Shown here: one piece after another, positions 39,838 to 47,556 of the stretch
Position numbering within the stretch: the first letter of the stretch is position 1
Layout of the letters: every line of letters begins with the position of its first letter
DNA from: Actinomyces oris
GTDB taxonomy: Bacteria > Actinomycetota > Actinomycetes > Actinomycetales > Actinomycetaceae
NCBI RefSeq assembly: GCF_006546825.1
Contig: NZ_VICC01000002.1
Span: forward strand, 124,001 to 188,000
Length of the DNA stretch: 64,000 bases
Direction of reading: 5' to 3'
The notes under the pieces: generated by a model
What the model was told of the DNA's origin: nothing
What the model saw: the letters and a program-made list of their open reading frames with translations, nothing else
The model's database searches: none
Position numbers and translations under genes: made by a program

Positions 39838-40761
39838 TCAGGCGCGGGGGAAGGCCTGCTCGTAGACGCTGCGCAGGCGCTCAGCCGAGACGTGGGTGTA
39901 GCGCTGGGTGGTGGCCAGGGAGGAGTGGCCGAGGAACTCTTGGACGCTGCGCAGGTCCGCTCCCCCGCCCAGGACGTGGGTGGCGGTGCTGTGCCGCAGT
40001 CCGTGCGGGCCCAGGTCGGGCACTTGGGCGGCCGCGCACAGGCGGTGGACGACGTCGCGCACCGCCCGGGGATCGATACGTCGCCCCCGCGCCCCGAGGA
40101 AGAGGGCGCCTCCCGCATCGACGGCGCAGATCTCACCGCGCCGATGCAGCCATGTCTCCAGCGCCTTGGCGGCGGGCAGCCCGTAGGGGACGGTCCGTTC
40201 CTTACGGCCCTTCCCCAGGACTCGCAGGGTCCGTTGGGAGTGGTCGAGGTCGGCGACATCCAGGCCGACGAGCTCGGAGACCCGCACTCCGGTCGCGTAG
40301 AGCGTCTCGATGATGGCCAGGTCACGCACGGCCAGGACGTGCCCGTCAGAGGCGAGGTCCGAGGCGGTCTTGAGCAGCTGCGAGGCTTGCTGGGTCGTCA
40401 GCACCCCGGGCAGGCGGTTGTCGACGCGGGGCGCGCGCAGACGCGCGGCGACGTCGGAGGTGAGCAGTCCCGTCTCGAAGGCCCAGGAGGAGAAGGTCCT
40501 CACCGAGGCCGAGCGGCGGGCCAGGGTGGCGCGCGAGTGACCGCTCGCGGCCATCGCGGCGAGCCAGTCCCGCAGATCCGCCAGGTCAAGGTTGGCCAGG
40601 GCGGCGTCGACTGGCTCCGCGTCACCCTCACCGACACCGAGGAAGCTCAGCAGGTCGTTGATGTCGACGAGATAGGCGCGCACGGTGTGCCCGGACAGGT
40701 CCCGTTGCAGGGCCAGGTAGCTGCGGTAGGAGTCGAGCAGATCGGCGCGCGTCCTCGGCAT
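39838..40761 (-). CDS. xerC: Tyrosine recombinase XerC
   Basis: Site-specific recombinase acting at dif for chromosome dimer resolution. The ATG at 40761 follows a strong GGAGGAGGG site and gives 307 aa. The SAM-like N-terminal domain (DSYRSYLALQRDLSGHTVRAYLVDINDLLSFL) is followed by the catalytic domain with TLYATGVRVSELVGL (Arg I), LGKGRKERTVP (Lys), HGLRHSTATHVLGGGADLRSVQEFLGHSSLATTQRYTHV (His-x-x-Arg, His and the Tyr nucleophile). Location next to rpsB/M23 and size agree with chromosomal XerC rather than a phage integrase; no attachment sites or phage genes are nearby. Confidence 0.93.
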   Translation of the reverse strand: MPRTRADLLDSYRSYLALQRDLSGHTVRAYLVDINDLLSFLGVGEGDAEPVDAALANLDLADLRDWLAAMAASGHSRATLARRSASVRTFSSWAFETGLLTSDVAARLRAPRVDNRLPGVLTTQQASQLLKTASDLASDGHVLAVRDLAIIETLYATGVRVSELVGLDVADLDHSQRTLRVLGKGRKERTVPYGLPAAKALETWLHRRGEICAVDAGGALFLGARGRRIDPRAVRDVVHRLCAAAQVPDLGPHGLRHSTATHVLGGGADLRSVQEFLGHSSLATTQRYTHVSAERLRSVYEQAFPRA

Positions 40762-41018
40762 GTGCTCCCTCCTCCCTGCTGGCGACAAGAACACCTGAAG
40801 ACTACGGCGCCGGGACGGGCCCTCCACGGAATACGCGCCGTAGGCATCGGCAGCGCACGGCCCGGTGACGCCGCTCTGACGCGCCCCGGCTCTGCCCGAG
40901 CACGGGGGTCTCGGCGACGCCCTCGCCACTAACCACCTCCGCCTCAGATCACTATCTCCGCCGGACAGACAATCGCCACCTTGATTCAACGCACAATCTC
41001 ACCATTCGAATCACAAGT

Positions 41019-41189
41019 TCATAACAACCATCCAGGCGGCACTACGGATACCAACCTCCCCTTCTCCTTGATCCCAACGAAAAATCCACTCTTCCTCTGT
41101 ATTTCCCCACATTCGGGACATTTGTTGCCGTCCAACGAGGAAGTTAAAATCTTGGTCGTTCTGACGAACTCCATCCCTTCCTGGCTCAT
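41019..41189 (-). CDS. Possible small zinc-ribbon-like protein
   Basis: A 56-codon frame from the ATG at 41189 has an AGGA site 7 bases upstream and contains a CPECGE motif at about 24-29, followed by a basic QRKSG stretch and a hydrophobic end. One CxxC pair alone would suit a half zinc ribbon or a dimer-bridging site. It lies in the AT-richer gap between xerC and the FHA cassette, and its base composition differs from all neighbours. The divergent gene at 41217 starts only 27 bases away, leaving little room for two promoters. No family recognised; it might be a decayed fragment. Confidence 0.35.
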   Translation of the reverse strand: MSQEGMEFVRTTKILTSSLDGNKCPECGEIQRKSGFFVGIKEKGRLVSVVPPGWLL

Positions 41190-41216
41190 CCCTATTTCCT
41201 GCTGGAGCGCAGCACT

Positions 41217-41582
41217 GTGAAACGGTTCTCCAGGCGCGGCGTCCACGTCGGCGTCATCGCGGTCCTGACCGCTGCCGCTCTGGTCGCCGTCGTCCTGCAC
41301 CCGGGGATGGTCACCCATGTTGTCGATCTTCATGACGGTGGAGTGCGGGCGACCAACGGGAGGATGGCGATGGTCGCCCACCTCAGCTACCGCTCGCAGA
41401 CGCTCAACAGGGGCCTGCGCACCTCCTCGACGAGCTTCGGCGTCGACCAGTCCGGCTCCCAGGTCGTCATGTCCGACGCCTCCTCGGACACCTATACGCA
41501 GATCGACGACATCACGCCGCCCCGGGCCACCGGCTCCGGCTCCACCGTCCCCACCCTCGTCTCCAGGAGGTTTCGTCCATGA
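41217..41582 (+). CDS. Short membrane-anchored protein resembling the N-terminus of actinobacterial Fn3/Ig-like giant proteins
   Basis: Encodes 121 aa from GTG 41217 behind a GGAG site. A single N-terminal helix (about 10-29) precedes the segment VVDLHDGGVRATNGRMAMVAHL and LNRGLRTSSTSFGVDQSGSQVV. This pattern, a DGGVxxTN motif followed by a 'leftover' (N/D)xGLR...FDVxQ stretch, is that of the first 110 residues of roughly 2000-aa fibronectin type III/Ig-like proteins that sit upstream of FHA-kinase operons in other actinobacteria. Here the frame ends 4 bases into the next gene (ATGA), so the long propeller and Fn3 part is absent. It is either a deletion remnant kept as a small anchor or a naturally short form. 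Confidence 0.6.
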   Translation: MKRFSRRGVHVGVIAVLTAAALVAVVLHPGMVTHVVDLHDGGVRATNGRMAMVAHLSYRSQTLNRGLRTSSTSFGVDQSGSQVVMSDASSDTYTQIDDITPPRATGSGSTVPTLVSRRFRP

Positions 41583-43207
41583 ACATGCTGACACGCTGGG
41601 TACCCGGCGACATCCTGGTCGCCGTCGGGGACGGCGGCGTTCTCGCCCTCGACGGGAGCGCGCAGGCGTTGGAGGCGATGTGGACCGAGCTCGGTGAGCA
41701 CCGCTGCCTCGGCGACCTGCTCAAAAGCCTGAGCCGGCTGCACGACAACGAGGTCTTCACCCTCCCCGACTTCCTCATGATGGCCATCGACGGCCAGGAG
41801 CTGCGAGTGGCCGCCCGAGGCCGCTTCTGCCTCCACCTGGACACTGCCGACGGCGAGCGCAGCTTCAGCGCCTCCGAGGTCGTCGTGTGGGAGGAGTCCC
41901 GCTATGAGCGGGTCAACCAGTGTATCCTCGAGCTCACCCCGGCCACCAGACACCCAGCCGGTCCCGAAGGGCTCGACGAGTTCCTCCCCCTGCGCTCGGG
42001 GATCGTCCGAGCCTCGCAGCTGCACATCGGCTTCGGAGACCACCAGCTCCCACTGTCCTCACCGGCTCAGACCGGCGCTCACGGGGGTCAGGGGGCACCG
42101 CAACCATCGGCGGCCCAGGAGATCCTCCAACAGGCTCAGGCCGACGGCGCCCCCGAGCGGGACGACCCACCGCCGTCGTCATCGCTACCTGCGAGGCAGG
42201 AGCAGGGCAAGGCCGCCTACCAGTCCCGCCCCGATCCCGGACAGACGCTGGAACCGCAGTCCATGGGCCCGATGGACAGTGCGGGCTCCCCGCAGGGGAC
42301 CGGGGCGGGGGATCCGGCCGCGGTGCTGGGACCCGACGACGTTCCGGCGGCCGAGGCCGCAGCCCCGCAGGCGCATGGACAGCAGGCCCAGGACGACAAG
42401 ACCGGTCGTCTTGTTGAGCGCACGATGATGCAGGGGGCCGAGGCGGTCGTCGGCCCGGCCTCCTCTCAGGACATGGATCCGTTGGCCCAGCTCGCCGCAG
42501 GGCCCGGACGTCACCGGGCCTCCCCTCTGGGCGAGAGCGCCTCCGGCCGACACTCGTCACAGGCCGCTGAGCCGCTCCCGGCTCAGCGGCAGGCCCCGGA
42601 CGGCGGCGCAGATGCAGCGTCCTCGAATGGCTCAGCGCCCTCGGGCGCGCAGGGCAAGCACGACGGGCGCACCGTCTCGGCTGCAGGACTTCATGCCGCC
42701 AGGAACGCACTAGGCGGGCAGACCGGGCTCGACGAGCCCTCCGGCACCGGCCCCAGCGTGATGGCCGTCTTCTGCGAGGCGGGGCACCCCAATCCGGTGC
42801 ACGCCTCCTCGTGCCGCGAGTGCGACAGCACCATCACCTCCAGGACCGGCCAGGTCGAGCGACCGGTCCTGGGCGTTCTGCGTGTCTCCTCAGGCGCCAC
42901 GGCGATCCTGGACACTGATGTCATCATCGGCCGACTGCCCCAGGGCACGAGCAGCACCGCCGCTCAGCGCCCCCGCCTGCTGACCGTCCCCAGCCCGGGC
43001 AAGGCGATCTCGAAGACTCACTGCGCCGTGAGGGTCGAAGGCTGGGACATGCGCGTGGAGGACCTGGGCTCCACCAACGGGACCTTCCTGCTGCGCGCCG
43101 GGGAGGAGCCCCGCCGCGTGCCCGAGCACCAGCAGCTTCTCCTGCGCGCCGGCGACATCATCGACATCGGTGATGGCACCACCCTGACAGTGGAGCGTGA
43201 GGCGTGA
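41579..43207 (+). CDS. FHA-domain protein with N-terminal cassette domain and zinc-ribbon-like motif
   Basis: Encodes 542 aa from an ATG with an AGGAGG site overlapping the previous stop. Residues 1-120 (WVPGDILVAVGDGGVLALDG ... GQELRVAARGRF) match the N-terminal domain of FHA proteins in actinobacterial Fn3-MoxR-DUF58-transglutaminase-PP2C-FHA-kinase operons. A Pro/Gly/Ser-rich, probably disordered linker (about 130-390) follows. Then comes a CxxxxxxxxxxxxCxxC motif (Cys399, 412, 415) and a C-terminal FHA domain with IIGRLP, SKTHCAVRV and DLGSTNGTF, which binds phosphothreonine. Coupled to the kinase gene downstream, whose substrate or partner it probably is. Confidence 0.88.
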   Translation: MNMLTRWVPGDILVAVGDGGVLALDGSAQALEAMWTELGEHRCLGDLLKSLSRLHDNEVFTLPDFLMMAIDGQELRVAARGRFCLHLDTADGERSFSASEVVVWEESRYERVNQCILELTPATRHPAGPEGLDEFLPLRSGIVRASQLHIGFGDHQLPLSSPAQTGAHGGQGAPQPSAAQEILQQAQADGAPERDDPPPSSSLPARQEQGKAAYQSRPDPGQTLEPQSMGPMDSAGSPQGTGAGDPAAVLGPDDVPAAEAAAPQAHGQQAQDDKTGRLVERTMMQGAEAVVGPASSQDMDPLAQLAAGPGRHRASPLGESASGRHSSQAAEPLPAQRQAPDGGADAASSNGSAPSGAQGKHDGRTVSAAGLHAARNALGGQTGLDEPSGTGPSVMAVFCEAGHPNPVHASSCRECDSTITSRTGQVERPVLGVLRVSSGATAILDTDVIIGRLPQGTSSTAAQRPRLLTVPSPGKAISKTHCAVRVEGWDMRVEDLGSTNGTFLLRAGEEPRRVPEHQQLLLRAGDIIDIGDGTTLTVEREA

Positions 43208-44472
43208 TGTCCTCCCCGAGCTCCGCCCCGCAGGGACCGCCGATCCCCGGAGCCAGCCCCAAGCGCCTCCTGGGCGCCGGGGGCTTCGCCGATGTCTTCC
43301 TGTATGAGCAGCGGGTGCCGCGCCGCGACGTGGCGGTGAAGATCCTGCGGCCAGGAGGCAGCCAGCGAGACCACCACCGGTTCACCACCGAGGCGGACCT
43401 CATGGCCCGTCTGTCATCGCACCCCTCCATCGTGTCGGTCTACGGGGCCGGGACGGTGGAGGAAGAGCGCAGCTACCTCATCATGGAGTACTGTCCCCCT
43501 CCCCACCTGGGCAAGCTGGCCGCCTCGCAGCCCTTGTCCCTCACACGCGCCCTGGAGATCGGTATCCAGCTGGCGGGCGCGGTGGAGACCATTCACCGGG
43601 TCGGCTACCTCCACCGCGACATCAAGCCTGCCAGCATCCTGCTCACCCCCTTCGGGCGTCCGGTGCTCGGCGACTTCGGGATCGCCGCGCCCATCGGGCT
43701 CAGCATCGAGAAGGACGAGTTCGGAGGGGCGTCCCCGCCGTGGGCCTCACCCGAGCAGCAGCTCGACCGGGAGAGCCTGACTCCGGCCTCGGATGTCTAC
43801 GCCCTGGCCGCGACCATCTACACGCTGCTGGCGGGACGCTCACCCCACGTCGATGTTTCAGGAGCCGACCGCAACGACCAGCTCTCGATGATCGACCGAG
43901 TGCTCCACCGACAAATCCCCCCGATCGGGCGACACGACATACCCGAGCAGCTCGAGCGGATCCTGGCCATGGCGATGGCCAAGTCTCCTCGCGGACGGTA
44001 TGCCAGCGCCATCGCCCTGGCTCGGGCGCTGCAACAGGTACAGACCGACCTGTGCCTGGCCATCACCCAGCTCGATGTCATGGAGGAAGCGTCCGGACGA
44101 CACACGAGCGGGAACCGGAACCAGGACTCCACGATGCTGCGGCCGGCCGTCATAGTGGACCCGGACGGGCCGACCAGAGCCGTGCCCGCCGCACACCGGC
44201 ACGACGACGCCGCCACGACCTTCGCGCCTCGTCGTGTCAAGGCCCAGCCCACCGGCTCCGCCTCGCTGTGCGACCGTCCCCGGCCCGGTTCCGCTCTCCC
44301 GCCCCAGGGCGATGAGGCCGAGGTCGCGAGAGACGACCCGGGCTCGCAGGAGGCCGAGGCGGGCCTGCAGCGGCGGCGCAGCCGCCCGTCGGGGCGAGCC
44401 GTGGCCGTCACCGTGGTGGGCGCCGCCGTCATGGTCTGCCTGAGCGCGATCGGAGTGTGGTCGGTGATGTGA
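43204..44472 (+). CDS. Membrane-anchored Ser/Thr protein kinase with altered catalytic loop
   Basis: Start GTG 43204 or ATG 43207 (the latter forms TGATG with the FHA stop); 422 aa. The kinase domain (about 15-290) has glycine loop LGAGGFADVF, Lys46 in VAVKIL, Glu63, HRD 137-139, Lys141, DFG 157-159 and an ASPE in place of APE (181-184). The metal-binding Asn of HRDxKxxN is Ser144 (AGC at 43633). A polar linker follows, then one C-terminal helix (about 397-420), ending almost immediately outside, with no PASTA or sensor domain. Reduced or altered activity is therefore possible. Partner of the FHA protein; converges with dprA. Confidence 0.87.
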   Translation: MMSSPSSAPQGPPIPGASPKRLLGAGGFADVFLYEQRVPRRDVAVKILRPGGSQRDHHRFTTEADLMARLSSHPSIVSVYGAGTVEEERSYLIMEYCPPPHLGKLAASQPLSLTRALEIGIQLAGAVETIHRVGYLHRDIKPASILLTPFGRPVLGDFGIAAPIGLSIEKDEFGGASPPWASPEQQLDRESLTPASDVYALAATIYTLLAGRSPHVDVSGADRNDQLSMIDRVLHRQIPPIGRHDIPEQLERILAMAMAKSPRGRYASAIALARALQQVQTDLCLAITQLDVMEEASGRHTSGNRNQDSTMLRPAVIVDPDGPTRAVPAAHRHDDAATTFAPRRVKAQPTGSASLCDRPRPGSALPPQGDEAEVARDDPGSQEAEAGLQRRRSRPSGRAVAVTVVGAAVMVCLSAIGVWSVM

Positions 44473-44608
44473 ATGGAAGAAGGAGCGATCATGACGAGTT
44501 CACCCGCCGAGCCCTGGCTCAGGCGCACCGGAGCATGTCGCTCGCATGCCTCACAAGGGTGGGGCAGGACCTGTCCATCATGGTCCCGCCGTCGTGGCAG
44601 GGCGCTCT

Positions 44609-45988
44609 TCAGTCCCGACCACCTGTGCCCTTCCGGGTGCGTCGCCTCCAGCCGGAGGCGGTGCGTTCCACCTTCCCTGAGAGCTCCAGGATCCCCAGTG
44701 CCGAGGTGGTCTCCTTCGGGGACAGCCCGGCGGAGCGGACGATGGACTCGGTACTCGCCGCGGCCCGGGCCGGCATGGCGTCCAGGACCAGCGAGGCGGC
44801 CGGGTCCAGGCCGTCGAGGAGCCCACCACCGGCCAGCTCGGGGTCCTGCTCCTTGGCGGCGTCCGCGTCGACGGTGCCCAGGGGCGTCAGCAGTTCCAGG
44901 GCATCGTCGGTATCGGTGATGCACACCGCCCCTTTGCGCAGGAGCCGGTGGCATCCGACCGAGGACATGGAGGTCACGGGGCCGGGAACGGCTCCCAGCT
45001 GCCTGCCCAGCTCGAGGGCGCGGTGGGCAGTGGACAGGGCGCCCGATCTCCAGGCCGCCTCCACCACGATCGTCGCCTGCGAGATCGCCGCGATGACGCG
45101 GTTGCGTGAGACGAACCGGTGGCGGCCGGGCTGACAGCCCGGCGGTACCTCCGCCACCAGGGCCCCGGAGGCGATGACTGCCTCCAGCACCCCGGTGTTT
45201 CCCAGCGGGTAGAGGCGGTCCACTCCCCCGGCTGAGATTGACACCGTTGGTCCCTCGCCCAGTGCCCCGCGGTGAGCGCAGGCATCGATGCCGAAGGCTC
45301 CCCCGGAGACGATGAGGCCACCTTTGGCCGTCACCCCCGCGGCCAGGGAGGTGGCGACCGCCTCCCCGTAGCGGGTGGAGGCCCGGGCCCCCACCAGTGC
45401 CAGGCACAGTCCGCTGGCCGGTCCCACCGGCATCCGCTGCTCACGTACAGGATGACCAGCACCCGCGACACGTGGAGCCTCGTCGTCTCCGACGGCCCCG
45501 GGCTCGCCTCCCTCAAGGCCCTTGTCCTTCAGGTCCCCGGCGTTGACCAGCAGCGAGGGGTCGCCGCGCACCCACAGACAGAAAGGCGGGTGCTCAAGCT
45601 GGTCGAGTCCCGGCGGCCACCAGGGCTCCCCCGGGAGGATGAGGCTGCCACCCAGGCGGTCAAGCACATCGAGCTCACGGCGGATATCGAGTCCCTCCAG
45701 GCGCGGCGCCCACCGGGCGGCGACCTGGGCCCAGCAGGCGCTGATATCGGCGGAGCCGGACATCCCCGGGGGCGGCTGCGGCACCGGTGGCCGCGGGGAG
45801 TCGCGCACCTGTCCGGAGGGGTCGATGGCCTCCTCCAAAAGCCACCTCAGGGCGGGACTCGGCCCGAGCCGGCCCACCACCATGGCTGCGGTGGCGTTGT
45901 CGGGCTCAGCCAGGCGGGACCAGGTCGCGCGTGCCAACGCCGGATCGTCGATGTCGTAGGGCAGTGTCATGGGCGTCATGGGCTTCAT
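44609..45988 (-). CDS. dprA: DNA processing protein DprA
   Basis: Loads RecA on incoming single-stranded DNA in natural transformation; also kept in non-competent bacteria. The Rossmann-like domain has LVGARASTRYGEAVA, GGLIVSGGAFGIDACAHRGAL, VDRLYPLGN, HRFVSRNRVIAAIS and TIVVEAAWRSGALSTA; a C-terminal winged-helix segment (ASTESIVRSAGLSPKETTSALGILELSGKVER) completes it. At 459 aa it is long, with an extended N-terminal domain and a Gly/Glu-rich insert before the fold. The ATG at 45988 overlaps the comM stop (ATGA). Convergent with the kinase gene; the 136-base gap holds no clear terminator. Confidence 0.95.
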   Translation of the reverse strand: MKPMTPMTLPYDIDDPALARATWSRLAEPDNATAAMVVGRLGPSPALRWLLEEAIDPSGQVRDSPRPPVPQPPPGMSGSADISACWAQVAARWAPRLEGLDIRRELDVLDRLGGSLILPGEPWWPPGLDQLEHPPFCLWVRGDPSLLVNAGDLKDKGLEGGEPGAVGDDEAPRVAGAGHPVREQRMPVGPASGLCLALVGARASTRYGEAVATSLAAGVTAKGGLIVSGGAFGIDACAHRGALGEGPTVSISAGGVDRLYPLGNTGVLEAVIASGALVAEVPPGCQPGRHRFVSRNRVIAAISQATIVVEAAWRSGALSTAHRALELGRQLGAVPGPVTSMSSVGCHRLLRKGAVCITDTDDALELLTPLGTVDADAAKEQDPELAGGGLLDGLDPAASLVLDAMPARAAASTESIVRSAGLSPKETTSALGILELSGKVERTASGWRRRTRKGTGGRD

Positions 45989-47556
45989 GGCCGCACTCCT
46001 GAGGTTCTCAGGGCCAGGGCGGTCCCGATGTGTGCGAGGGAGAGGGTGTCGAGCCCCTCGAGGTCGGCGAGGGTCCAGGCCAGTCTGAGGACCCGGTCCA
46101 CCCCGCGCAGGGAGAGGTCGCCGCGTTCGAGGGCGGTCATGAGCCGGCGGCTGAGTGGAGCGCTGAGTCCGCCGTCGGGTCCTCTGAGGTAGGAGCCGGG
46201 GACCTCGGCGTTGAGGCGCCACGGGGTGCCGGCCAGCCTGCGCTCCGCGGCCCGGCGGGCACGCAGGACGCGCCGCGCCACCTCGGCGCTGGACTCTCCA
46301 TGGCCGGCGGAAGCGAGGTCGGCGGCGCTGACGGCACCGACCTCGACCTGGATGTCGACCCGGTCCAACAGTGGACCGGACAGTCGTGAGAAGTAGCGCC
46401 GCCGCTGCAGGGAGGTGCAGGTGCACTCCAGGCCCCGACCGCCGGCCTTGCCGCAGGGGCAGGGGTTGGCGGCCAGGACGAGCTGGAAGGCGGCCGGGTA
46501 GCTGGCACGCCCGCCCACCCGGTCGATGGTGACCGCTCCCGACTCCAGCGGCTGGCGCAGGCAGTCCAGGACGCCGGCGCTGAACTCGGGGGCCTCGTCG
46601 AGGAAGAGCACCCCGCGGTGAGCCAGGGAGACGTCCCCGGGGCGGGGTAGGCCTGAGCCTCCCCCGACGACGGCGGCCCGGGTCGCCGTGTGGTGCGGCG
46701 CGCGCAACGGCGGCCGGGTGATGAGTCCGCGGGCGGGGTCGAAGATGCCGGCCACGGAGTGCAGGGAGGTGACGGTGACGGCGTCGGCCTGCTCCAAGGG
46801 CGGCAAGATGGAGGGGAGCCTCTCAGCGAGCATGGTCTTGCCCGTCCCCGGGGGCCCCACCATGATGAGGTGATGTCCCCCGGCGGCGGCGACCTCGAGG
46901 GCCTGGCGGGCCTCGGACTGCCCGACGACGTCGGCCAGGTCCGGCTGCTCGGCATCCCGCGGCGGGGTCGTGGGGGCATCGTCTGTGGCGGCCTCGGTGA
47001 TCTGCTCCAGCGCGGTGGCCACGGCCGCGCTCAGGCGCCCTCCATAACGCTCGACGAGCTGGCCGACGTGCCTGACGGCGGTGACGCGGGCGCCGGGGAC
47101 GAGCTCGGCCTCGGCCGCGGCCTCCTGGGCGACGACGATCTCCTCGACCCCAGCGGCCACCGCGGCCTGGACGCTGGGCAGGACACCGCGCACCGAGTGC
47201 ACGGAGCCGTCCAGCCCGAGCTCGCCGATGTAGACGGTCCGTCCCAGGAGCCCGGCCGTGCTCCGTCCGAGCCGACCGCGGGCCCCCAGGACGGCCAGGG
47301 CGAGCGCCAGGTCCAGCCCGGTCCCGGTCTTGCGCAGGTCCGCTGGGGAGAGGTTGACGGTCAGGCGCTGCTCACCCCAGGTGACGCCGCAGGTGCTCAA
47401 CGCGGCCCGGACGCGCTCGCGCGACTCACGCACGGCGGCGTCGGGCAGGCCCACGAGGGTGAATCCGGGCAGGCCCTGGGCGGCATGAGCCTCGACCTCA
47501 ACGATGTGTCCGGCCAGCCCGGTCAGCGTCACAGCGAGTGTGCGAGCTAGCCCCAT
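45985..47556 (-). CDS. comM: ComM/YifB-type Mg-chelatase-like AAA+ ATPase
   Basis: Hexameric helicase family associated with branch migration during transformation. The N-terminal ChlI-like domain (VTLTGLAGHIVEVEAHAAQGLPGFTLVGLPDAAVRESRERVRAAL) precedes the AAA core: Walker A MVGPPGTGKTMLAERLPSILPPL, Walker B LFLDEAPEF, and the typical VLAANPCPCG followed by a Cys-rich CTC segment and SGPLLDRVDI. The ATG at 47556 gives 523 aa; the open frame upstream is non-coding. Placed between yraN and dprA, the common actinobacterial order, with 4- to 10-base overlaps on both sides. Confidence 0.95.
   Translation of the reverse strand: MGLARTLAVTLTGLAGHIVEVEAHAAQGLPGFTLVGLPDAAVRESRERVRAALSTCGVTWGEQRLTVNLSPADLRKTGTGLDLALALAVLGARGRLGRSTAGLLGRTVYIGELGLDGSVHSVRGVLPSVQAAVAAGVEEIVVAQEAAAEAELVPGARVTAVRHVGQLVERYGGRLSAAVATALEQITEAATDDAPTTPPRDAEQPDLADVVGQSEARQALEVAAAGGHHLIMVGPPGTGKTMLAERLPSILPPLEQADAVTVTSLHSVAGIFDPARGLITRPPLRAPHHTATRAAVVGGGSGLPRPGDVSLAHRGVLFLDEAPEFSAGVLDCLRQPLESGAVTIDRVGGRASYPAAFQLVLAANPCPCGKAGGRGLECTCTSLQRRRYFSRLSGPLLDRVDIQVEVGAVSAADLASAGHGESSAEVARRVLRARRAAERRLAGTPWRLNAEVPGSYLRGPDGGLSAPLSRRLMTALERGDLSLRGVDRVLRLAWTLADLEGLDTLSLAHIGTALALRTSGVRP

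What the first reader, a model, noticed from the sequence alone, without database searches (positions are those of the whole stretch)
41217..44472. Compact anchor-FHA-kinase cassette, apparently missing the middle of a larger actinobacterial operon
Seen: three coupled genes encode a 121-aa membrane-anchored protein, an FHA protein and a membrane-anchored kinase, with an AT-richer junction on the left. Known: in other actinobacteria, FHA proteins with a similar N-terminal domain lie near Ser/Thr kinases downstream of a giant Fn3/Ig-like protein, MoxR AAA ATPase, DUF58, transglutaminase and PP2C genes. Inference: the first gene matches the N-terminus of the giant protein, but the giant C-terminus and the intervening genes are gone, and a neat ATGA overlap now joins anchor and FHA genes. 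This is either a deletion that stayed coupled or a minimal form of the system.
Basis: partly seen in the sequence, partly recalled or inferred. Interest (0 to 1): 0.75.

Follow-up and report, generated by a model that had tools for sequence, protein, structure and literature searches.

The report
Leftover of a collapsed surface-signalling operon
Three small genes in this Actinomyces are what is left after at least five deletions wrecked an operon of about 18 kb for a giant surface protein and phospho-signalling that close relatives still carry, so the short form is most likely a decaying remnant rather than a streamlined new system.

Summary
The three coupled genes are real. They are the remains of a longer operon still carried by Actinomyces oris S64C (G021) and P6N (G040) and a third relative (G045): giant, MoxR, DUF58, transglutaminase, RDD-FHA, PP2C, FHA, kinase, FHA3, lying between xerC and dprA where the contig shows both (G040, G045). 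A deletion of about 13 kb, ending in a 15-bp near-repeat, fused in frame the first ~95 residues of the giant (membrane helix plus six of 28 predicted propeller strands) to the last ~28 residues of PP2C. Four smaller deletions removed part of the kinase linker, the kinase ectodomain and most of FHA3. A second genome, G020, shares all five. The ATGA overlap is inherited from PP2C-FHA; the AT-rich left side is the giant gene's own leader. Since the two copies split, the genes show 27 nonsynonymous to 12 synonymous changes, as expected without selection, and both kinases lack the catalytic-loop asparagine. So: a deletion, as suspected, but probably decaying, not a selected minimal form. The operon shrank independently in two other Actinomyces lineages; in one the FHA gene is under purifying selection. 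Seven relatives join it to a type VII secretion cluster, a link I did not find in print.

The parts
40976..41216 (+). native 5' leader of the former giant gene (AT-richer; not a scar)
   Evidence: 75-88% identical to the leader of the intact giant gene in G045, G040, G021; GC 0.49 here, 0.51-0.55 there
41217..41582 (+). 121-aa fusion ORF: ~95 residues of the giant (membrane helix, start of beta-propeller) joined in frame to the last ~28 residues of PP2C
   Evidence: residues 1-111 vs 2058-2120-aa frames; residues 93-120 vs the ORF just before FHA; alignments; fold
41494..41508 (+). junction of deletion D1 (12,961 bp vs G040, 13,165 bp vs G045): 15-bp near-repeat ACACGCAG[A/G]TCGACG at both ends in G021 (one mismatch; two in G040)
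41579..43207 (+). FHA protein, 542 aa; recalled phosphothreonine-binding motif residues (GR, SxxH, NG) kept
   Evidence: Pfam FHA 473-531; orthologues 73-81% in G021/G040/G045
43204..44472 (+). truncated Ser/Thr kinase, 422 aa: kinase domain, shortened linker, membrane helix at the very end; catalytic-loop HRDIKPAN is HRDIKPAS
   Evidence: intact orthologues of G021/G040/G045 are 595-597 aa with an ectodomain
44286..44303 (+). junction of deletion D2 (~162 bp, in frame, kinase linker); no clear repeat
44465..44475 (+). junction of deletion D3 (~433 bp): kinase ectodomain and spacer lost, new stop codon; no clear repeat
44491..44531 (+). relic of the downstream FHA3 gene (start codon and a few codons, then D4 and D5)
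   Evidence: matches to the FHA3 gene of G021/G040/G045
44506..44520 (+). junction of deletion D4 (~432 bp inside FHA3; 9-bp repeat GCCGAGCCC in G021)
44518..44531 (+). junction of deletion D5 (~284 bp vs G040; about 12-bp near-repeat)
39838..40761 (-). xerC, left flank that fixes synteny
44609..45997 (-). dprA, right flank that fixes synteny (start codon approximate)

Best explanation
The cassette is the collapsed remainder of a second copy of an actinobacterial surface-signalling operon. In the intact form a membrane-anchored protein of about 2000 residues (one membrane helix, beta-propeller, about ten Ig-like and two Fn3 domains) is encoded with MoxR, DUF58 and transglutaminase proteins; a membrane kinase, a PP2C phosphatase and FHA readers would form a phosphorylation switch, in several relatives just upstream of a type VII secretion ATPase that carries its own FHA domain. 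Here at least five deletions, three of them at short near-repeats, removed about 14.3 kb: D1 fused giant and PP2C, D2 and D3 stripped the kinase of part of its linker and of its ectodomain, D4 and D5 erased most of FHA3. Leader, start codon, frames and overlaps survived, so three open, overlapping ORFs remain. Shown: anatomy, junctions, shared state in two genomes, relaxed constraint on the anchor and near-neutral recent change. Inferred: the anchor stub cannot form a propeller and has no function; the kinase is weak or inactive because the metal-binding asparagine is gone; the loss was tolerated because a paralogous operon remains in the genome.
For: Intact syntenic operons and junction alignments. 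PP2C orthologue at 89-90% in G021/G040, absent from G000, G020, G001 and G022, where the matches are 39-42% paralogues. G000 keeps a paralogous operon on contig C4: giant, MoxR, DUF58, transglutaminase, RDD-FHA, and FHA plus kinase facing them. Anchor dN/dS on the collapsed branch 0.61-0.83 vs 0.10-0.11 between intact copies, one-sided Fisher p 0.003, 0.003, 0.017. The VWVT tryptophan, invariant in 25 of 25 giant N-termini of alignment A3, is R in both collapsed copies. G000-G020: 27 nonsynonymous, 12 synonymous; observed fraction 0.69, neutral expectation 0.69-0.73. Of 131 kinase columns invariant in six intact orthologues, 4 are changed in both collapsed copies (N144S among them) and 3 more in G020 only; in a leave-one-out control the near relatives G021, G040, G045 have 1 of 132 each, the more distant G033 5 of 136, G019 10 of 141, G047 39 of 170. 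Predicted fold of the giant N-terminus: helix 6-27, 28 strands over 43-352, then an Ig-like domain; best PDB match the propeller/PKD surface-layer protein 1l0q, E 7e-13, TM 0.41. The operon is gone in G001 (about 0.2-kb gap) and G022.
Against: All three frames stay open in both genomes and no stop arose among 39 substitutions (P 0.37 under neutrality, so uninformative). FHA alone shows no significant rise in dN/dS on the collapsed branch (0.55-0.56 vs 0.41-0.51; p 0.11, 0.36, 0.28), and the kinase rise is significant in one of three comparisons (p 0.0009, 0.077, 0.13). The recent counts reject dN/dS 0.35 (p 0.016) but not 0.45 (p 0.11), which is close to the intact FHA value. The G000-G020 tract is young (dS 0.012-0.021 vs 0.03-0.27 in nine flanking genes), and dN/dS is inflated at short distances. 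FHA motif residues are intact.
Confidence: 0.8

Rival explanations
1. Deletion that stayed useful: the FHA protein and truncated kinase are kept as a minimal signalling pair, perhaps as a decoy phospho-reader and pseudokinase acting on the paralogous system.
For: Frames open and overlapping in two genomes; FHA motif residues kept; recent changes do not exclude dN/dS 0.45; in another clade (G042, G006, G016, G008) a reduced operon without giant, DUF58 and transglutaminase keeps FHA at dN/dS 0.26-0.32 in six comparisons and, in G042 and G006, a kinase without a C-terminal membrane helix at 0.375.
Against: 27:12 change since the G000-G020 split fits neutrality and rejects 0.35 (p 0.016); catalytic-loop Asn lost; phosphatase orthologue gone.
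Confidence: 0.16
2. The short form is ancestral, and the long operon was built by insertion between anchor and FHA genes.
For: None found.
Against: The 121-aa protein is a chimera of two genes that are separate in the three intact relatives examined; 132 of 141 giant N-terminus matches in 213 Actinomycetaceae genomes lie in frames of 1500 aa or more; FHA3 relics follow the cassette.
Confidence: 0.01
3. Assembly artefact joining distant pieces.
For: None.
Against: G020, held as a single contig, matches 40501-45500 at 97.4% without a gap, junctions included.
Confidence: 0.01

Closest known systems
PFNA operon of Bifidobacterium (pkb2, fn3, aaa-atp/MoxR, duf58, tgm, with or without prpC, a hypothetical gene and fha), PMC8430577, PMC10688814, PMC6803598 (passages read)
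   Same: The intact relatives have the same kinds of genes, with giant-MoxR-DUF58-transglutaminase in the same order and PP2C and FHA after them; giant 2003 aa with two fn3 stretches (best 1548-1619) vs 1994 aa with FN3 at 1494-1671 published for B. longum. In an unnamed family f3 of the order, a profile of giant N-termini finds giants of 2001 and 2021 aa directly after a kinase; in one of these loci MoxR, DUF58 and transglutaminase follow by Pfam, the PFNA order.
   Different: Kinase and main FHA gene come last, not first; RDD-FHA and FHA3 are added. The window cassette keeps only kinase, FHA and a stub. [quoted passage not shown]
T7SSd type VII secretion of Actinomycetota (PMC11217815, abstract and passages read)
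   Same: EssC-type ATPase with an FHA domain, a WXG100 protein and a linked membrane kinase; in 7 of 49 Actinomyces genomes an EssC-like gene of at least 65% identity lies just downstream of the operon.
   Different: T7SSd is described with five core parts, among them a large TsdI (1654 aa in Olsenella uli), which could be a counterpart of the giant; not tested. The term searches found 0 occurrences of Actinomyces and fibronectin and of MoxR and transglutaminase in that paper. The window has no EssC gene next to the cassette.
Hanks-type Ser/Thr kinases of the PknB kind
   Same: Pkinase domain; VAVK, HRD and DFG motifs; C-terminal membrane helix.
   Different: No ectodomain; catalytic-loop Asn is Ser.

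Membership tests
[quoted passage not shown]
   fn3 is a ~95-residue stub; aaa-atp, duf58 and tgm lie inside the D1 deletion
[quoted passage not shown]
   Pkinase, fn3 with Big_9, AAA_3, DUF58, Transglut_core
PFNA operon (intact orthologue, G045) | fixed order with pkb2 first | tested here: not met
   kinase is the eighth gene
PFNA operon | sequence homology to a named bifidobacterial FN3 | tested here: inconclusive
T7SSd (G045 locus) | FHA-bearing EssC/TsdC ATPase | tested here: met
   T7_EssCb E 2.1e-164 over 212-1476, but 549 bits against an equivalog cut-off of 778; FHA domain E 4.6e-12
T7SSd (G045 locus) | WXG100 protein TsdA | tested here: met
   PF06013 E 1.1e-15
T7SSd (G045 locus) | TsdH and TsdI | not tested
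   no reference sequences at hand
active Hanks-type kinase | Lys, HRD, catalytic-loop Asn, DFG (recalled motif set) | tested here: not met
   Asn is Ser in both collapsed copies; the others are kept
FHA domain | Pfam FHA above cut-off with GR, SxxH, NG | tested here: met
giant propeller/Ig/Fn3 surface protein | membrane helix, complete propeller, Ig and Fn3 domains | tested here: not met
   only the helix and six of 28 predicted propeller strands remain in the 121-aa ORF

The most novel reading that the evidence does not exclude
The ancestral locus is one machine, in which a giant propeller/Ig/Fn3 surface protein, its MoxR-DUF58-transglutaminase genes and a kinase-PP2C-FHA switch serve a type VII secretion system. 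Actinomyces lineages shed the surface arm again and again (three independent cases seen) while some of the phospho-signalling parts persist and can be re-used, making the A. oris-group cassette an early stage of such a rewiring.
Probability: 0.2. Interest if true: 0.65.

Novelty: new variant of a known kind. Interest (0 to 1): 0.42.

Why it matters
It gives a graded series of one locus (27.4, 19.8, 3.9 and 0.2 kb between xerC and dprA) and three independent shrinkages, so the question of which parts of a PFNA-like surface-signalling operon need each other becomes testable by comparison. It also extends the operon type, printed as unique to Bifidobacterium, to Actinomyces, and links it physically to a type VII secretion cluster. 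The cassette itself is most likely ordinary decay.

Tried and rejected
Short form ancestral: rejected (chimeric protein, FHA3 relics). Artefact: rejected (same junctions in G020). AT-rich left side as an insertion scar: rejected. New ATGA coupling: rejected (inherited). Other short giants: of 141 N-terminus matches listed for 213 Actinomycetaceae genomes (102 with a match), 5 lie in frames under 900 aa: G000 and G020 (the case in hand), G032 (independent deletion, giant N-terminus fused to the transglutaminase tail), G075 (the contig ends 0.5 kb after the match) and G078 (giant split over successive frames). Of 75 named loci (the best 80 of 140 confirmed stretches were kept), 6 had frames under 900 aa: five run off the end of the locus and the sixth, Arthrobacter L208, is followed by further frames of the giant. 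A PDB sequence search with the giant N-terminus gave six weak matches in its C-terminal, Ig-like part; the propeller came from the fold search. No sigma-70 promoter or terminator match in 40700-44900, which says little at this GC. The xerC and dprA trees differ in detail and some nodes are poorly supported, so the number of complete losses is a parsimony reading.
Full report
What is there. The window (G000 contig C2:124001-188000) holds three overlapping + strand ORFs between xerC and dprA, both on the - strand: 121 aa (41217-41582), 542 aa (41579-43207) and 422 aa (43204-44472). Pfam finds FHA in the second and a protein kinase in the third; the first has no Pfam match above a family's cut-off.

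Where the 121-aa protein comes from. In its own genome it matches the start of a 2101-aa frame on contig C4 (33%, E 1.2e-10). That frame belongs to a paralogous set with MoxR, DUF58, transglutaminase and RDD-FHA genes on one strand and FHA and kinase genes facing them (Pfam; no PP2C gene was seen there, and PP2C paralogues lie on C7 and C1). Of 49 Actinomyces genomes, 41 have a match at E<=0.01; G021, G040 and G045 reach 77-78% over residues 1-111 in frames of 2058-2120 aa, and in the same three, residues 93-120 match at 61-75% the end of the ORF just before the FHA gene (E 6e-5 to 1e-3). That ORF is the PP2C phosphatase. The protein is thus a chimera.

The intact operon. In G040 and G045 the operon lies after xerC and before dprA: giant, MoxR, DUF58, transglutaminase, RDD-FHA, PP2C, FHA, kinase, FHA3 (Pfam for G045, where FHA3 had no FHA match; its name rests on likeness to FHA folds read by eye; G040 by likeness of the translations). 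In G021 the giant lies next to xerC on contig C19, transglutaminase to FHA3 on C20 and dprA on C9; its MoxR and DUF58 genes were not read. G040 has two extra genes between xerC and the giant.

The deletions. Aligned to G040, G021 and G045, the window is collinear except at five places. D1: 12,961 bp (vs G040) or 13,165 bp (vs G045), ending in the near-repeat ACACGCAG[A/G]TCGACG (one mismatch between its two ends in G021, two in G040), read in the same phase in both genes. D2: ~162 bp in the kinase linker. D3: ~433 bp taking the kinase ectodomain. D4: ~432 bp, at a 9-bp repeat. D5: ~284 bp, at a ~12-bp near-repeat. D4 and D5 lie in and after FHA3. D2 and D3 show no clear repeat. Together about 14.3 kb. 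G020 matches 40501-45500 at 97.4% without a gap, so all five are shared. The left leader is ancestral.

State of the genes. Between window and G020 the three genes differ by 12 synonymous and 27 nonsynonymous changes; random change would give 0.69-0.73 nonsynonymous, and the observed fraction is 0.69. dN/dS 0.35 is rejected (p 0.016), 0.45 is not (p 0.11). Pairwise dN/dS between intact copies is 0.39-0.47 for FHA, 0.25-0.36 for kinase and 0.09-0.10 for the giant N-terminus. The tract is much more alike (dS 0.012-0.021) than nine flanking genes (dS 0.03-0.27), with a sharp change near 44604-44626, which suggests the collapsed allele was exchanged between the two lineages; that inference is mine. 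Over the longer collapsed branch the anchor has dN/dS 0.61-0.83 against 0.10-0.11 in intact copies (p 0.003, 0.003, 0.017); the kinase 0.46-0.54 against 0.22-0.35 (p 0.0009, 0.077, 0.13); FHA 0.55-0.56 against 0.41-0.51 (p 0.11, 0.36, 0.28). The kinase lacks the catalytic-loop asparagine that six of six intact orthologues keep; that this residue binds metal is textbook knowledge, not tested here.

The stub. AlphaFold2 on an alignment of 25 giants (490 residues of A. oris S64C, mean pLDDT 81.8, pTM 0.67) gives a helix at 6-27, 28 strands over 43-352 (enough for seven four-stranded blades) and an Ig-like domain; Foldseek's best PDB match is 1l0q, a YVTN beta-propeller and PKD surface-layer protein (E 7.2e-13, TM 0.41, rmsd 14.4), followed by other propellers. 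The window keeps six of these strands (43-97), so a closed propeller is not expected.

How the locus varies. The gap between xerC and dprA is 3.85 kb in G000 and G020, 19.8 kb in G040, 27.4 kb in G045, 0.2 kb in G001, 1.7 kb in G022 (unrelated genes), 2.5-2.6 kb in G035, G018, G039 and G030 and 1.07 kb in G014; by nucleotide search the last five keep an FHA3 gene but no other operon gene. G027 and G024, the remaining two of nine intervals examined, hold other genes. With the xerC/dprA trees this reads as an operon eroded or lost several times.

Other reductions. In G032 the giant N-terminus is fused in frame to the transglutaminase tail, with RDD-FHA, PP2C and a WXG100 gene after it and FHA and kinase gone. 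In G042, G006, G016 and G008, between rpoC and rpsL (named by eye), MoxR, RDD-FHA, PP2C and FHA remain without giant, DUF58 or transglutaminase (Pfam for G042, the others by likeness). G042 and G006 keep a kinase without a C-terminal membrane helix; none was seen in G016, a 98-bp relic is left in G008, and PP2C is broken in G008. FHA there evolves at dN/dS 0.26-0.32 (six comparisons), so a reduced form can be maintained. Each of these five genomes, like G000 and G020, has another giant in a frame of 1958-2210 aa elsewhere.

The wider system. In G045 an EssC-like ATPase with an FHA domain, a T7SS_signal protein and a WXG100 protein follow FHA3. EssC-like proteins of 65% identity or more to it occur in 7 of 49 genomes (one, G019, in two pieces), and in all 7 lie next to this operon; in G043 the genes between FHA and EssC were not read. 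A. oris S64C and P6N, G000 and G020 show no such close homologue (best 33-51%).

Giants beyond the genus. A profile of giant N-termini matches 87 of 149 genomes drawn from the order (some matches are to Ig-like repeats only). Three loci of family f3 show kinase before giant; in L267 MoxR, DUF58 and transglutaminase follow by Pfam, while the next gene, PP2C-like by eye, had no Pfam match at 1e-4.

Literature. Passages of PMC8430577, PMC10688814 and PMC6803598 describe the bifidobacterial PFNA operon and say it, or its orthologues, is not found outside the genus. Passages of PMC11217815 describe T7SSd and suggest phospho-control. Actinomyces with PFNA gave 0 papers. Searches on MoxR, DUF58, transglutaminase or Fn3 with kinase listed nine and six papers; searches on T7SS or kinase with Actinomyces listed 10 of 68, 12 of 1,124 and 8 of 51; no listed title concerns this link, but most of these papers were not opened, and only this open-licence library was searched.

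Verdict. A precisely reconstructable collapse of a PFNA-like operon, most likely decaying; of moderate interest in itself, with a more interesting ancestral locus behind it.

Noticed in passing
L147 (G045 C1:1307613-1316507): EssC-like ATPase with FHA domain, T7SS_signal protein and WXG100 protein directly after the PFNA-like operon; an EssC-like gene next to the operon in 7 of 49 Actinomyces genomes.
   Followed up: partly
L267, L268, L269 (family f3 of the order): Kinase before giant, then MoxR-DUF58-transglutaminase (Pfam in L267), as in the bifidobacterial PFNA operon, found with a profile of actinobacterial giants; suggests the operon type is not unique to Bifidobacterium.
   Followed up: partly
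L240 (G032 C1:3434936-3435484): Independent collapse: giant N-terminus fused in frame to the transglutaminase C-terminus; the conserved VWVT motif is altered here too.
   Followed up: partly
L272-L275 (rpoC-rpsL locus of G042, G016, G008, G006): Reduced operon without giant, DUF58 and transglutaminase but with FHA under purifying selection; DFG is DLG in the G042 kinase and DPG in the G006 kinase.
   Followed up: partly
window 41119-44604 vs G020: About 1% divergence with a sharp rise to about 7% inside dprA; suggests recombination moved the collapsed allele between lineages.
   Followed up: partly
L178: A contig filed as Vibrio cholerae strain 35D encodes an actinobacterial-type giant N-terminus; probably contamination.
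   Followed up: no
G000 C7:40691-42879: A further PP2C-FHA gene pair, paralogous to the lost PP2C and to the window's FHA.
   Followed up: no
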